Shown one piece after another: positions 4,962 through 62,880 of a DNA stretch of 64,000 nt. Every line of letters starts with the position of its first letter. Position 1 is the stretch's first letter. Below the pieces are notes generated by a model. It saw only the letters and a program-made list of their open reading frames with translations, was not told the DNA's origin and ran no database searches. A program made the translations under genes and the position numbers. Source of the DNA: an uncultured Pseudomonadales bacterium (lineage in GTDB: Bacteria > Pseudomonadota > Gammaproteobacteria > Pseudomonadales > Pseudohongiellaceae); contig CALSUH010000006.1 of NCBI GenBank assembly GCA_943789485.1, positions 33,464 through 97,463 of the forward strand. The letters run 5' to 3'.

Positions 4962-5010
4962 TGCACAGCGCGAAGCTAGAGCTGACAAACAGCCCGAAGG
5001 CTGTTTGGAT
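4962..5010 (+). repeat. remnant of a cassette left-end repeat with hairpin
   Basis: CAGCGCGAAGC followed by GACAAACAGCC-CGAA-GGCTGTTTGGAT. This matches the outer part of the left-end repeat seen at 35251-35285 and 45721-45758, including the stem (4987-4994 with 4999-5006). The tRNA-Phe part and the TAGCACAC boxes that precede this hairpin in the other copies are not recognisable here. Only the tail of a junction survives, between the sugar operon and the decayed minus-strand operon. The 180 bp before it (4779-4961) hold no gene I can support. Confidence 0.55.
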
Positions 5011-5101
5011 TATTGACTCACCCATAGATGGGCCCGGGTCTCGCCCAGCTACTATTAAAGGATTGGAGAAATCAATTTTAAACCCTCCGACCCCTTTAAT
5101 A

Positions 5102-6078
5102 CTATTTCATCCCTGCAAATCGATCATTCATGATTGATGCAGCCTCATTCATGATTCGGTCCATAAGTTCTTGCACCGAAGGGATGTCATTGATCAAGCC
5201 AGGCAACCATGCCGCAGGACCAAGCTCCACTATCAACCTCTCCATCCATCATCACTTTTGGATAGACACCGGCAACCTCAGGTGCAATATCCTCAAACTT
5301 AATGCCTTTACCTAGAGCTGCTTCTTTTTCCAGCAACCGTTCTACCGCCGTATTGGTAAGCACGCGCTCGGTATTGCGCAGTGGTCGCATGACCAATCGC
5401 GTATCGAGCTCGGTGGCTGCAAGCAATGCCTGCTTCACATTGTCATGCACCGGCGCTTCTTTGGTGGCGATAAAGCGCGTACCCATGTTCATTCCTTCAG
5501 CGCCCATTGCCAGCGACGCAACCAAGGATCGACCATCGGCCATACCGCCCGATGAAACAAAAGGTATCTCTAATTCATCCGCGGCACGGGGCAACAAAAT
5601 GAAAGTTGGGAATATCATCTTCACCGGGGTGGCCGCCGCATTCAAAGCCATCGACAGAAACCGCGTCACAGCCAATTTCTTGTGCCTTGAGGGCGTGCCG
5701 AACTGAAGTACATTTGTGAATAACCTGAATGTTATTCTCTTTCAATATGGGCAACCACTTTTTGGGGTTATTCCCTGCAGTCTCAACTACCTTGATCCCC
5801 TTGCTTATGAGAACATCAACGAGCCCCGGGATAGTCAGGCGGAGTGAGCGATGGTAGGAATGTAAGGTTTACGCCAAAAGGCTTGTCGGTGAGCGCCTTG
5901 CATTTGTCGATCTCGTTACCGAGCTTCTCGGGAGTACCCTGGGTCAACGCCGTTATGATTCCTAAGACCACCTGCATTGGATACCGCCGCCGCTAATTCC
6001 GCGAAGCCCACATAGTGCATTCCGCCCTGTATGATCGGATGCTCGATTCCCAGCAATCTTGGTTATTTTAGTTTCCAT
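5102..6078 (-). pseudogene. nitronate monooxygenase (2-nitropropane dioxygenase family), frameshifted
   Basis: FMN-dependent TIM-barrel enzyme remnant that would have oxidised nitronates or related compounds. From the ATG at 6078, pieces in different frames read METKITKIAG, IEHPIIQGGMHYVGFAELAA, ITALTQGTPEKLGNEI, KPFGVNLTFLPSL, GIKVVETAGNNPKKWLPIL, GCDAVSVDGFECGGHPGEDD, IPFVSSGGMADGRSLVASL and GAEGMNMGTRF. The order is exactly that of the family, including the GGFECGGH-like flavin-site motif. At least four frame changes interrupt it, the last near the C-terminus (GMVAWLIND then PSVQELMDRIMNEA). It is the promoter-distal gene of the decayed HxlR-linked operon. Confidence 0.85.
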
Positions 6079-6221
6079 GAGTTTTCCTGTCCCTGCCCCG
6101 CTGGTGTTGTTCTAGCTTACTGTCTATATATACCGAATAATCCATTTTTCAGCCGCACTTCGCGGAAAAGCCCGTCTCGCAGACTAACCATTTGGGATCG
6201 CAGTCATTCTAGTTGCCGTCG

Positions 6222-7415
6222 CTACGCTGCTTGACGCACTACATTAGCGTCAATCAGCTCATTGCTTTCACTCTCGCTGTAACCCAACCCGGCAAGTATC
6301 TCCAAGCTATGTTGCCCTAACTTAGGTGCCGGCAATCTAAGAGTACTTTCCGTTAATTGAAATTGTGCGGCGGGAATAGCTTGACGCACTTCGCCGAAAC
6401 CCTCGACCTGCTGCCGGTTTACCGTACCGCCCTCCACTATTTGAGGATGTCTAATAGTTCCTGTCTGCTTAGTATCGGGAGCGCAGGGCACATCTTGAGC
6501 ATCCAGTATTTGCTAGCAATTCTCTGGTAAGGGCGTTTTGCAATTTCGGCGCCAGCTATTTCTCGTCTCACTGCTATATTTTGACGGCGAGCAAAGCGGT
6601 GGCAAAGCGCTTCGTCACTGATTAGCTCAGGACGACCTGACAGCGTTACAGAAGCCTTCCCATTCTTTGTCAGAGACGTACTCATGGTGATATAACCATC
6701 ACTGCTCTCATAGATCAGATCGATTGAGGAGAATGACTTCTTGTGGTCTGCCTCCTTCTCGGCGAAGGTTAGTCCGCTCATCCCCTCTGGCCAAAAGAAG
6801 GCTACAGTCGCATCCAGCATGGACAGTTTGATATGTTGGCCTTCGCCCTTCCTCTCTCGATGAAACAGCGCGCTCGAAATGGCCTGAGCTGCGGTCAAGG
6901 CAGAAATTTTATCGGCGATGATGATGCGGAACATACCCGGCCGGCCTGTTTCTCGATTTGCTTGAATATCTGCGGCACCAGAAAGCCCCTGAATAATCGG
7001 ATCATAACTCGCTTGTGGGCGTAGGGACCTTTTTCGCCAAAGCCGCTGATGGAAACAAAAATAATGCCTTGGTTGCGTTTTCTGACTATCTCTTCAGCCA
7101 AAACCCATTCGCTCTATCGCACCCGGACGGAAATTCTGCAGCAGAACGTCCGCACCATCTATGAGCTTCCAGAGCACTTCCTTGCCAGCATCGCTTTTCA
7201 AATCAATGCGCGAGCGATTTCTTATTGCGATTGCAGGAATAAAAGGTGGGTGTCATATCATTGTGTTGCTCGCCCAAGAACCTCAACTGCTCGCCATGAG
7301 TTGGCTCGACTCTTGATGACGTCCGCGCCCTGATCGCCTAGCATCATGGCGGCCACTGGCCCCGATACCATGCTGGTTAAATCTAGTACTTTTATACCCT
7401 GTAAAGGCCCCATGG
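6222..7415 (-). pseudogene. CaiB/BaiF (family III) CoA-transferase, frameshifted
   Basis: Remnant of a family III CoA-transferase, which moves CoA between carboxylic acids. It starts MGPLQGIKVLDLTSMVSGP, the usual N-terminus, continues MMLGDQGADVIK, GIIFVSISGFGEKGPY (conserved GFG-x-x-GP), ALTAAQAISSALFHRERKGEGQHI and SMLDATVAFFW, and ends near GYSESESNELIDANVV. These blocks lie in at least three frames, with sequence lost around 6940-7260. Residues upstream of 7415 in the same frame do not resemble the family. It lies between the GST and nitronate monooxygenase remnants and was probably co-transcribed with them. Confidence 0.85.
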
Positions 7416-61442: not shown

Positions 61443-61521
61443 ACGGTTTGTATCGACAGTTCACCACGCAGTAACATTTGAACCAGATCATCATTGAACA
61501 ATAATCAGAAGGAATAAATTG

Positions 61522-62604
61522 ATGGGGCCAATACCTCAAGGCGGAACAGTGGCAGTTACAGGCAGCGCGGGTTTTATCGGCGGCTGGATTGTCAGATTAC
61601 TCTTGGAAAAGGGTTACCGAGTGCGCGCCTGCGTTCGAGACGCAAGTGATCAAACGAAAACTGCTTTTTTGAAGGCAATGCCAGGCTACCTTAGCGGGCG
61701 ATTGACCCTACATTCAGCCGACCTTGATAAGCCAGGATGTTTTGATGCTATCTTCAAAGGCTGTCACGGTATTGCCCATGTGTCCCATGTCTCAACCTAC
61801 ACGGACACAGACTACGTGCAAAAAGTGTACGACCACATCATCAATAGCGTCAATTTATCGGGGACAGTAAGTCGCATCGTAGTGACTTCCAGCATAGCTG
61901 CGGTAATCGGCGAAACTGACATTCAGGAGCTTGTACGCCGACCCATCTGCAATGAAGACCGTTATCCAGATGAGGGAAATCCCAACCGTTCGGCTAAGGG
62001 CGGTCAAGGTTACTCCATGGGGAAAGTTTTACTGGAACAAACATTCTCTGATGCAGCCGAAACAAGCGGACAATGGGATGCTATCACTTGCTGCCCTGGC
62101 GATAATATTGGCCCCATTCTCGCCGCCCATCAAAAAGAAGCTGGCCCCTGGCAACATAACATGGAGACTATGCTGCTTGGTGAATACACAGAAAATGTGA
62201 TCGGAGCCTATCGCAACTGGTGGACCGTAGATGTCCGTGACACGGCAGAGGCTCATATTCGCATGCTTGAAAGTAACGCTGTAGAAAATGGGCAGCGTTT
62301 CATCGCTTGGTCAACAGAATCGCGAGATGTGAAAGACGTATGCGCTAGCATCGATCGTCTTCTGCCCGAGCTGGGCTTTGCAGGAGCTGACATCATCGAC
62401 CCGCACCCCGAGCCTATTAAGGAAAAAGAAGCGATCCTTCGAGCCGTTTGGGGAGGCTGCGAATTACGCAATGAACGTATTCGTAACACGCTGGGCATGG
62501 AATTCCGCCCTCTCGATACCTCACTACGCGACTGCGTCGAGTCTCTCTTGTCTGTAGGACAAGTACAACCCAAGCTGAAGCGGAGATTCGAAGCGCAATC
62601 GTAA
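61522..62604 (+). CDS. extended-SDR reductase (dihydroflavonol-reductase/epimerase-like)
   Basis: A 360-residue NAD(P)-dependent enzyme from ATG 61522; an adjacent TTG at 61519 adds one codon. Cofactor motif VAVTGSAGFIGGWIV, RVRACVRDASDQTKT (basic residue suggests NADPH), active-site SSIAAVIGET and GYSMGKVLLEQ (Y-x-x-x-K). The C-terminal domain covers residues 190-350. Fits the DFR/cinnamoyl-CoA-reductase-like group, reducing aldehydes or ketones. Next to TetR on the same strand with a 79-bp gap. Confidence 0.88.
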   Translation: MGPIPQGGTVAVTGSAGFIGGWIVRLLLEKGYRVRACVRDASDQTKTAFLKAMPGYLSGRLTLHSADLDKPGCFDAIFKGCHGIAHVSHVSTYTDTDYVQKVYDHIINSVNLSGTVSRIVVTSSIAAVIGETDIQELVRRPICNEDRYPDEGNPNRSAKGGQGYSMGKVLLEQTFSDAAETSGQWDAITCCPGDNIGPILAAHQKEAGPWQHNMETMLLGEYTENVIGAYRNWWTVDVRDTAEAHIRMLESNAVENGQRFIAWSTESRDVKDVCASIDRLLPELGFAGADIIDPHPEPIKEKEAILRAVWGGCELRNERIRNTLGMEFRPLDTSLRDCVESLLSVGQVQPKLKRRFEAQS

Positions 62605-62610
62605 TTAAGT

Positions 62611-62880
62611 GAGGTCAGCGTAGAAAACTAATAGTGGTCGATTACTTTTACTCGAATTCTATAGCACTCTTCTTAGCACACTCTGATTTTCGCAGTTTTA
62701 ACTTACTGATTTGAATAAATAATCGGTCACGCAGGCTACTGAAAACCCTCGTGTCGATGGTTTACGGCGGAACGCCGCCCGTAGGGTGAGAAATTTGATT
62801 TAATCAAAATTTGAATCACTAACTGCGCCAGCAATTTGCAACGAACGCACAGCGCGAAGCCCGCAGGGGACAGGTATCGA
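62611..62880 (+). repeat. cassette junction copy R7 (truncated tRNA tail)
   Basis: Edge near 62611 (GAGGTCAGCGTAGAAAAC), boxes TAGCACTC (62662) and TAGCACAC (62674), AATCGGTCACGCAGGCTA, CTGAAAACCCTCGTGTCGAT then GGTTT (62739-62762), followed at once by ACGGCGGAACGCCGCC, GTAGGGTGAGAAATTTGATT and CGCGAAGCCCGCAGGGGACA. Deletion end points differ from R6, so the truncations happened independently. Confidence 0.87.

What the first reader, a model, noticed from the sequence alone, without database searches (positions are those of the whole stretch)
4962..62880. Tandem array of cargo cassettes bounded by tRNA-Phe 3' ends and TAGCACAC boxes
Seen: seven junctions (10.44, 18.28, 23.87, 35.01, 45.49, 51.82, 62.66 kb) share one grammar: edge GGGGTCAGAGTAAA, 51 bp, two TAGCACAC boxes 11-12 bp apart, about 55 bp, then tRNA-Phe sequence from the anticodon loop. 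They are all in one orientation and cut the window into segments of about 5.6-11 kb, each with its own regulator or operon. Only one segment has a large integrase, and it carries an extra box pair just upstream. Inference: repeated integration at a tRNA-Phe 3' end has built an array of mostly integrase-free cassettes, moved in trans, comparable in idea to tRNA-targeting satellite elements.
Basis: partly seen in the sequence, partly recalled or inferred. Interest (0 to 1): 0.93.

Follow-up and report, generated by a model that had tools for sequence, protein, structure and literature searches.

The report
tRNA-anchored array of cargo gene cassettes
In a genus of gammaproteobacteria, packages of metabolic genes with matching ends sit head to tail in one direction, in relatives directly behind a tRNA-Phe gene, and some of the same packages recur in other species; they were likely inserted one after another at the tRNA by a travelling integrase that nearly all of them lack, which would make this a tRNA-based counterpart of integrons.

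Summary
Seven co-oriented junctions (box pair, ~55 bp arm, tRNA-Phe 3' sequence from the anticodon loop) cut the window into segments; one segment carries the integrase. The 'GGGGTCAGAGTAAA edge' is a genome-wide repeat, not part of the junction. A junction model hits 45 of 84 genomes of the genus, up to 25 hits in one; 0 of 21 genomes from other families of the order have a full-length hit. In 14 fetched regions, one per genome, junctions follow an intact tRNA-Phe on its strand. Cassettes recur between species, some with ends at junctions. Window 30.57-35.08 kb is 98.7% identical to a stand-alone cassette of G098, whose chromosome matched at 65-72% where compared. Of 96 closed cassettes, 1 contains the integrase family. 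Best reading: serial site-specific insertion at tRNA-Phe of integrase-free cassettes, likely mobilised in trans by elements like window 23.94-30.08 kb. Tandem tRNA/ssrA island arrays and cis-mobilizable elements are known; new here are small cassettes with dedicated ends, a covarying tRNA-repairing left hairpin, and genus-wide occurrence. No excision or transfer was shown.

The parts
10444..10547 (+). Junction J10: box pair, arm, core at 10520; tail truncated in the T-loop and joined to left-end repeat
18282..18384 (+). Junction J18: variant boxes, core at 18357; tail truncated
23868..23988 (+). Junction J24: boxes, core at 23943, complete tRNA-Phe 3' end to CCA; left border of the integrase element
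24040..24058 (+). Second (left-arm) box pair TGGCACACCCTTAGCACAC, 97 bp after the core; spacing 97-98 in seven elements
24104..25465 (+). Tyrosine integrase, 453 aa; predicted N-terminal beta domain (arm-binding type), then helical and catalytic domains
25462..26232 (+). Backbone ORF, 256 aa, no Pfam, PHROG or PADLOC family
26522..27517 (+). ORF, 331 aa, no Pfam, PHROG or PADLOC family
29182..29778 (+). Second, catalytic-domain-only tyrosine recombinase (198 aa), within a stretch 94% identical in the UBA4457 copy
29980..30084 (+). Right edge of integrase backbone: palindromic motifs shared with UBA4457 (99%) and, beside the left arm, with integrase-free elements of G024, G018 and G060
30570..35082 (.). 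Captured cassette (BNR protein, TonB receptor), 98.7% identical to a stand-alone cassette of G098
35013..35133 (+). Junction J35: boxes, core 35088, complete tRNA-Phe 3' end
35120..35305 (+). Cassette left end: tRNA acceptor strand, long covarying hairpin/terminator, further hairpins
35088..45559 (.). Cassette: redoxin, HupE, PpiC-type, DUF3604, sulfatase, HTH regulator; a homologous cassette sits directly at tRNA-Phe in G012
45485..45605 (+). Junction J45: boxes, core 45560, complete tRNA-Phe 3' end
45592..45778 (+). Cassette left end with hairpin
45560..51896 (.). Cassette: DUF3604, TetR, GST
51822..51924 (+). Junction J52: boxes, core 51897, truncated tail
51897..62737 (.). Cassette: NMT1-like substrate-binding protein, DctM, enolase-like, glyoxalase, PQQ/cytochrome, TetR, epimerase
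62662..62765 (+). Junction J63: boxes, core 62738, truncated tail
10520..15870 (.). Left part of segment 1: DUF3604 (split over two ORFs), PpiC-type, HupE, alpha/beta hydrolase
15875..18351 (.). Right part of segment 1 (ADH, unknown, MarR): stand-alone 2.63 kb cassette in G028 and G098 (88%)
18357..23942 (.). Segment 2: DUF6644, PQQ dehydrogenase, metallo-hydrolase

Best explanation
This is a one-directional tandem array of cargo cassettes, each bounded by tRNA-Phe 3' sequence, that were likely inserted one after another at the tRNA-Phe gene by a tyrosine integrase that nearly all of the cassettes lack and that would act on them in trans. Shown: each junction joins a cassette's right end (two boxes, ~55 bp, half core) to tRNA-Phe tail sequence; in some relatives the first cassette starts inside an intact tRNA-Phe gene; the integrase element carries box pairs on both sides of its core and sits at tRNA-Phe in other species. 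Inferred: the integrase binds the boxes with its N-terminal domain and the anticodon-loop core with its other domains; recombination between a circular cassette's core and the tRNA swaps in the cassette's own tRNA 3' end, so the tRNA stays functional and the new cassette takes the head position. The left-end hairpin, which pairs the tRNA acceptor strand and a terminator with an inverted copy, probably ends tRNA-Phe transcription while the cassette is at the head and decays once a newer cassette displaces it. Integrase elements would arrive, move cassettes (singly or as blocks between two junctions) and be lost again, leaving integrase-free arrays. How DNA passes between cells is unknown.
For: Junction anatomy and orientation; 132 sites (118 junctions, 14 tRNA-Phe) in 36 regions with at least two sites, from 23 genomes, no region with hits on both strands (four sites under 20 bits dropped, also co-oriented). 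From the listed rows, 36 contigs with 104 hits, 1 contig mixed. Array behind intact tRNA-Phe in 14 regions, including single-contig genome G024 with nine junctions within 38 kb. Crossover: the same integrase element (96-97% identical DNA) lies at tRNA-Phe in L019 and L020, and identity with the window begins in the anticodon loop. Cassette homology ends at cores: of 124 array alignments, 14 have right ends within 60 bp of a core in both genomes (shifted mean 0.05, maximum 2 in 1000) and 25 have left ends near a core in both (mean 1.1, maximum 8); 29 of 40 chromosomal-flank alignments end at the tRNA core. Recent transfer: window 30.57-35.08 kb against G098, 98.7% over 4546 bp versus 65-72% for three matched pieces of one 18 kb chromosomal stretch; four-cassette block G028/G098, 96.5% over 8757 bp, ending 8 bp past a core on one side and starting 37-104 bp after a core on the other, versus tRNA flank 75.2%; window segment 4 at the tRNA of G012, 85-90% versus 67-69%. 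Integrase family in 1 of 96 closed cassettes. Left arm at 97-98 bp in seven elements, and both boxes changed to TAGCATAC beside the 39-41% identical integrase of G009. Left-end helix covariation: 33 two-sided cells versus 9.2 shuffled and at most 4 slid, on 15 chosen complete left ends. Left ends keep the tail at 9 of 9 heads but at 9 of 35 internal sites. Integrase model with N-terminal beta domain, Foldseek matches to Tn1549 and lambda integrases.
Against: No excision, circle or transfer was observed. 110 of 124 array alignments do not have right ends at a core in both genomes, and 27 opposite-orientation alignments were dropped before that count. Typical integrase-free cassettes lack the left-arm boxes, so a complete lambda-type attP is absent from them. 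Only 9 of 61 genomes searched have any match to this integrase, and 4 of those one that is at least 39% identical over most of it (G000, G019, G059 with stops, G009); array-bearing G024 (single contig) and G012 (four contigs) have none close, so the presumed trans helper is missing there. The window's own tRNA-Phe was not found. Some junctions of the window's genome (C1, C5, C7, C16) lie inside long contigs, and no tRNA was found in the stretches fetched around those on C5, C7 and C16. 11 of 25 tRNA-Phe heads looked at carry neither the left end nor the left arm.
Confidence: 0.68

Rival explanations
1. Decayed accretion: each segment is a former integrative element that inserted with its own integrase and later lost it by deletion; the cassettes are fixed remnants (cis-mobilizable at most), not units moved in trans.
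For: Integrase-free head elements in G024 and G018 keep left-arm boxes, and an internal cassette of G060 a degenerate pair; all three are followed within about 100 bp by a palindrome that lies at the far side of the integrase backbone in the window, as after deletion of the integrase. This path is the one reviewed for tandem islands (PMC5704250, passages).
Against: Many cassettes lack the left arm and share a different conserved left end. 95 of 96 closed cassettes show no trace of this integrase family at E<=1e-4. A stand-alone cassette is shared at 98.7% between G000 and G098, whose chromosomes matched at 65-72% where compared, so it moved recently.
Confidence: 0.4
2. Homologous recombination: conserved junction ends (100-300 bp) serve as RecA homology, so cassettes and blocks are exchanged between arrays without site-specific recombinase after an initial seeding.
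For: A four-cassette block is shared at 96.5% between G028 and G098 with ends near cores; left and right ends are conserved enough to serve as homology. Most array alignments do not end at cores.
Against: At array heads the cassette meets the tRNA 5' half, with shared sequence only from the anticodon loop into the tail; RecA exchange also gives no reason for arm boxes at fixed spacing or for one orientation at the tRNA head.
Confidence: 0.25
3. Dispersed REP-type repeats: the junction motif is an ordinary intergenic repeat and the segments are just chromosome.
For: Some junctions lie away from any tRNA-Phe seen, and the GGGGTCAGAGTAAA repeat near several junctions is truly dispersed.
Against: Junctions are co-oriented, cluster in arrays, carry tRNA-Phe tails, follow intact tRNA-Phe genes and bound shared cassettes.
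Confidence: 0.02

Closest known systems
Dehalococcoides ssrA genomic islands (PMC3146451; passages read)
   Same: Tandem islands downstream of one RNA gene, each bounded by its 3' end; 15 of 31 lack an integration module and were proposed to be cis-mobilizable; one shared cargo class
   Different: Target is tmRNA, the integrase is a relative of SCCmec CcrB (a serine recombinase, recalled), and the repeat is 20 bp with a 15-bp motif beside it; no arm box pairs or tRNA-repairing hairpin left end appear in the passages read. Here 1 of 96 closed cassettes has the integrase family and junctions occur in 45 of 84 species of a genus
Cis-mobilizable elements (CIMEs) and tandem accretion (PMC5704250; passages read)
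   Same: Elements without integration genes between attachment sites, next to an integrase-bearing element at a tRNA
   Different: CIMEs are defined as decayed elements that keep attL and attR; these cassettes have a one-armed right site and a different conserved left end, and some are shared as small units
Additive flexible islands with a tRNA insertion target (Alteromonas fGI1, PMC4119200; tRNA-Lys repeats in Methylopumilus, PMC10872708; passages read)
   Same: A tRNA collects gene cassettes, with repeated tRNA 3' ends
   Different: The passages read describe no dedicated arm boxes, left-end hairpin or trans integrase
Tycheposons (passages in PMC10872708; the original paper was not among the search hits and is recalled)
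   Same: tRNA-bounded cargo elements with a tyrosine recombinase
   Different: No link to phage satellites tested or found here; the units are mostly integrase-free and in one-way arrays
Integrons and integrase-less cassette arrays, CALINs (passage in PMC11389934)
   Same: One-way arrays of cassettes; arrays without integrase that could be moved in trans; likely growth at one end
   Different: The integrase is not an integron integrase; the site is a core with arm boxes at a tRNA gene; cassettes often hold several genes and their own regulators

Membership tests
Integrative element at a tRNA gene (tyrosine integrase) | Integrase gene next to an attachment site whose core is the tRNA 3' part | tested here: met
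   Integrase starts 0.16 kb after the core; same element at intact tRNA-Phe in L019 and L020
Integrative element at a tRNA gene (tyrosine integrase) | Element sequence from the core onward restores the tRNA 3' end | tested here: met
   ARAGORN finds intact tRNA-Phe at heads with element-borne tails
Cis-mobilizable element (CIME) | No integration or transfer genes | tested here: met
   95 of 96 closed cassettes lack this integrase family; the ORFs scanned in the window's integrase-free segments gave metabolic, transport and regulatory Pfam hits or none; transfer genes and other recombinase families were not searched in cassettes of the other genomes
Cis-mobilizable element (CIME) | Retains functional attL and attR | tested here: inconclusive
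   Right site with two boxes present; left-arm boxes found at 2 of the closed cassettes without integrase (G024, G018 heads) and not in the others by the same pattern; function not testable
Cis-mobilizable element (CIME) | Mobilised with an integrase-bearing neighbour | not testable with these tools
   No reads or experiment; composite segment 3 is suggestive
Integron / CALIN | Integron integrase (TIGR02249) associated with the array | tested here: not met
   Window integrase: only a weak XerA-like NCBIfam hit (29 bits, cut-off 220)
Integron / CALIN | attC sites recombined as folded single strands | tested here: inconclusive
   Left end has a 28-pair covarying helix, but it overlaps a terminator and its role in recombination is unknown
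Tycheposon | tRNA border, tyrosine recombinase and cargo | tested here: met
   definition from passages
Tycheposon | Phylogenetic or satellite-type relation to the Prochlorococcus elements | not tested
   Reference sequences were not fetched; integrase has no match in the phage records and junction DNA none beyond the tRNA part

The most novel reading that the evidence does not exclude
A tRNA-based cassette-capture system that works like an integron: tRNA-Phe is the fixed entry site, and small integrase-free cassettes carry dedicated ends (arm boxes on the right; on the left a hairpin that repairs the tRNA and ends its transcription). A roaming integrase shuffles a genus-wide pool of metabolic cassettes in trans, adding them at the head and leaving older ones to decay down the array. 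The folded left-end hairpin may itself be a recombination substrate.
Probability: 0.35. Interest if true: 0.82.

Novelty: new variant of a known kind. Interest (0 to 1): 0.66.

Why it matters
Tandem islands at tRNA genes are known, but they are usually read as piles of decayed elements. Here the units are small, share dedicated ends, almost never carry the integrase, and some recur between species at identities well above the chromosome (98.7% against 65-72% in the best case). That points to a shared cassette pool served by a travelling integrase. It offers a concrete, testable model of how 'additive' metabolic islands grow in bacteria, with a tRNA gene in the role of the integron entry site, and a signature (junction model R1) to search for it elsewhere.

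Tried and rejected
The REP-repeat reading was rejected. The GGGGTCAGAGTAAA edge was rejected as a junction part. Integron integrase was rejected for the window enzyme. The genus's conserved 400-aa Xer-like recombinase was considered as the trans helper; it is 17% identical to the window integrase and its relative is present in G077, which has no junction hit at E<=1e-7, so nothing links it. The integrase has no match in phage records; its 5 plasmid matches are at 23-30% identity. Junction DNA matches phage (6 of 6 records) and plasmid records (the 8 listed of 65) only from the tRNA part onward. A 24-base junction pattern had no exact hit in viral contigs. No Rfam family reached its gathering score in the window; no PADLOC hits for the seven segment-3 proteins scanned; no PDB sequence match for the integrase. 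Degenerate junctions were sought inside composite segments 1 and 3; only a chance-level 3.4-bit trace at 30085 was seen. My first boundary statistics mixed in junction-only or chromosomal-flank alignments and were replaced. Eight paper searches ran; among their listings I saw no description of this system, but only five papers were opened (passages) and the library holds open-licence PMC papers only.
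Full report
What was checked. The seven junctions were read directly and aligned with five more from the same genome. The most conserved blocks are the second box (TAGCACAC), an AATCGGTCACGC stretch, and ACTGAAAATCCTCGTGTCG. The last is tRNA-Phe sequence from the anticodon loop; it runs on to CCA at three of the seven window junctions. A sequence-only model (R1) built from the 12 sites finds 21 places in the genome at E<=0.001, 12 of them the sites it was built from.

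Genus-wide picture. With R1 at E<=1e-7, 45 of 84 genomes of the genus have hits (27 of 48 that are at least 90% complete and at most 5% contaminated), up to 25 in G093. Of 21 genomes from other families of the order, none has a hit that starts before model position 32, i.e. mostly tRNA-Phe-like parts match (both searches used stricter filters that lose weak matches). I assembled 55 regions under 34 genome labels. 36 regions from 23 genomes have at least two sites (118 junctions and 14 tRNA-Phe), and no region has hits on both strands. In 14 regions an intact tRNA-Phe stands at the head and the junctions follow downstream on its strand; the junction of one of them (G003) is weak (24 bits). In the single-contig genome G024, nine junctions follow the tRNA within 38 kb. 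The 96 closed cassettes have a median length of 3.2 kb (middle half 1.9-6.5 kb); some are composite. Of 25 tRNA-Phe heads with at least 120 bp of sequence behind them, 9 start with the cassette left end, 5 with left-arm boxes and 11 with neither.

Integrase element. The 453-aa integrase has weak Pfam and clear PHROG integrase matches. Its predicted fold has an N-terminal beta domain with a helix, as in arm-binding integrases (recalled), then helical and catalytic domains (pLDDT 85.5, pTM 0.54, so domain placement is uncertain). Foldseek matches include Tn1549, XerA and lambda integrases. A 97% identical integrase lies at an intact tRNA-Phe in an uncultured Pseudomonadales MAG (L019, very likely the same record as G019) and in UBA4457 (L020). 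Against both, window identity begins in the anticodon loop, which places the crossover there or further into the shared tail. Left-arm boxes stand 97-98 bp from the core in seven elements. The divergent integrase of G009 (39-41%) has both boxes changed to TAGCATAC, as expected if integrase and boxes evolve together. The backbone ends at 30084 in palindromic motifs shared with UBA4457. In G024, G018 and a cassette of G060 at least one of these motifs follows the left arm within about 100 bp, without integrase, so integrase loss by deletion also seems to happen.

Cassettes move. A homologue of window segment 4 lies directly at the tRNA-Phe of G012: homology starts at the core (window 35088) and ends just past the next core (45587), with 66% of the window cassette and 86% of the G012 one aligned. 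Window 15.88-18.35 is a stand-alone 2.63 kb cassette in G028 and G098 (88%). Window 30.57-35.08 is a stand-alone cassette in G098 at 98.7% over 4546 bp, while three pieces of one 18 kb chromosomal stretch matched G098 at 65-72%. G028 and G098 share four consecutive cassettes (8757 bp, 96.5%), from 37-104 bp after one core to 8 bp past another, while their tRNA flank is 75.2% identical. In G098 the block follows the first cassette. In G028 it starts near a contig end, and the tRNA contig carries other cassettes; the two contigs are not joined, but this fits older cassettes agreeing while head cassettes differ. Across 124 array alignments, right ends fall within 60 bp of a core in both genomes 14 times (1000 shifts: mean 0.05, maximum 2) and left ends near a core in both 25 times (mean 1.1, maximum 8). 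Left out of the 124: 27 alignments in opposite orientation, 18 with under 400 bp outside the junction, and 40 starting upstream of a tRNA; of those 40, 29 end at the tRNA core. Most of the 124 end elsewhere, as old, rearranged arrays might.

Left end. Cassettes with a full left end carry the tRNA tail, then a 28-pair helix made of the tRNA acceptor strand plus a terminator against an inverted copy, then further hairpins. On 15 left ends, chosen because they were complete, 33 cells changed on both sides (shuffles 9.2, slides at most 4) and 95.5% of cells pair. Left ends at tRNA heads keep the tail in 9 of 9 cases; internal ones in 9 of 35; 86 further internal sites show no left-end signature. 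Part of this is required, because a head without a tail is not a tRNA; but it fits selection at the head and decay behind it. In J10 and J52 the loss looks like deletion between the two GGTTCGA copies of the left end (by eye).

What it works like, and what it is. By anatomy it is a tRNA-targeting integrative system with accretion. The closest described cases are Dehalococcoides ssrA islands, CIMEs, and additive islands with tRNA targets (passages). It works like an integron, with a fixed entry site, one-way array and mostly helperless cassettes, but it is not one by its integrase. Not shown: excision, integrase binding, trans action, cell-to-cell transfer.

Host. The conserved Xer-like protein of the window's genome has an 87% identical hit named Pseudohongiellaceae bacterium among other names, one of them (90%) Rhizobiaceae, and the L019 relative is named Pseudomonadales, so the host is probably a gammaproteobacterium near Pseudohongiellaceae.

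Noticed in passing
whole genome of the window (e.g. window 10658-10692, 20704-20738, 23810-23845): GGGGTCAGAGTAAA is part of a dispersed repeat, often in close inverted pairs; 62 sites with at most 1 mismatch. In the window a 35-bp inverted pair flanks 20.7-23.8 kb.
   Followed up: partly
window 10864-14604 and 36969-40807: Two diverged copies of a DUF3604 / PpiC-type / HupE gene set lie in two different cassettes, one with DUF3604 split over two ORFs; a third DUF3604 gene is at 46093-47973.
   Followed up: no
L139, L143, L148, L150, L136, L131: A conserved 400-420 aa Xer-like recombinase is present in these six genomes (73-92% identical to that of G000); a PF00589 search of nine genomes gave no obvious XerC/XerD pair.
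   Followed up: partly
L123 (G012), and perhaps L124 (G024): An integron integrase (TIGR02249, 350 bits, cut-off 265) in G012, so integrons and tRNA arrays can coexist (only L123 tested).
   Followed up: no
L063-L064 (G024 4.508-4.528 Mb); L016 (G000 C5): Short co-oriented junction arrays with no tRNA found in the fetched stretch, perhaps displaced array pieces or secondary sites.
   Followed up: no
L020 21-95: The UBA4457 tRNA-Phe joins a different 5' half to the element's tail, leaving mismatches in the anticodon stem when read by eye; at a contig end, so it could be an assembly chimera.
   Followed up: no
window 29182-29778: Catalytic-domain-only tyrosine recombinase inside the integrase backbone, in a stretch also present in UBA4457; role unknown.
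   Followed up: partly
window 45808-45961: 26-nt inverted repeat with 102 nt between arms inside a cassette left region.
   Followed up: no
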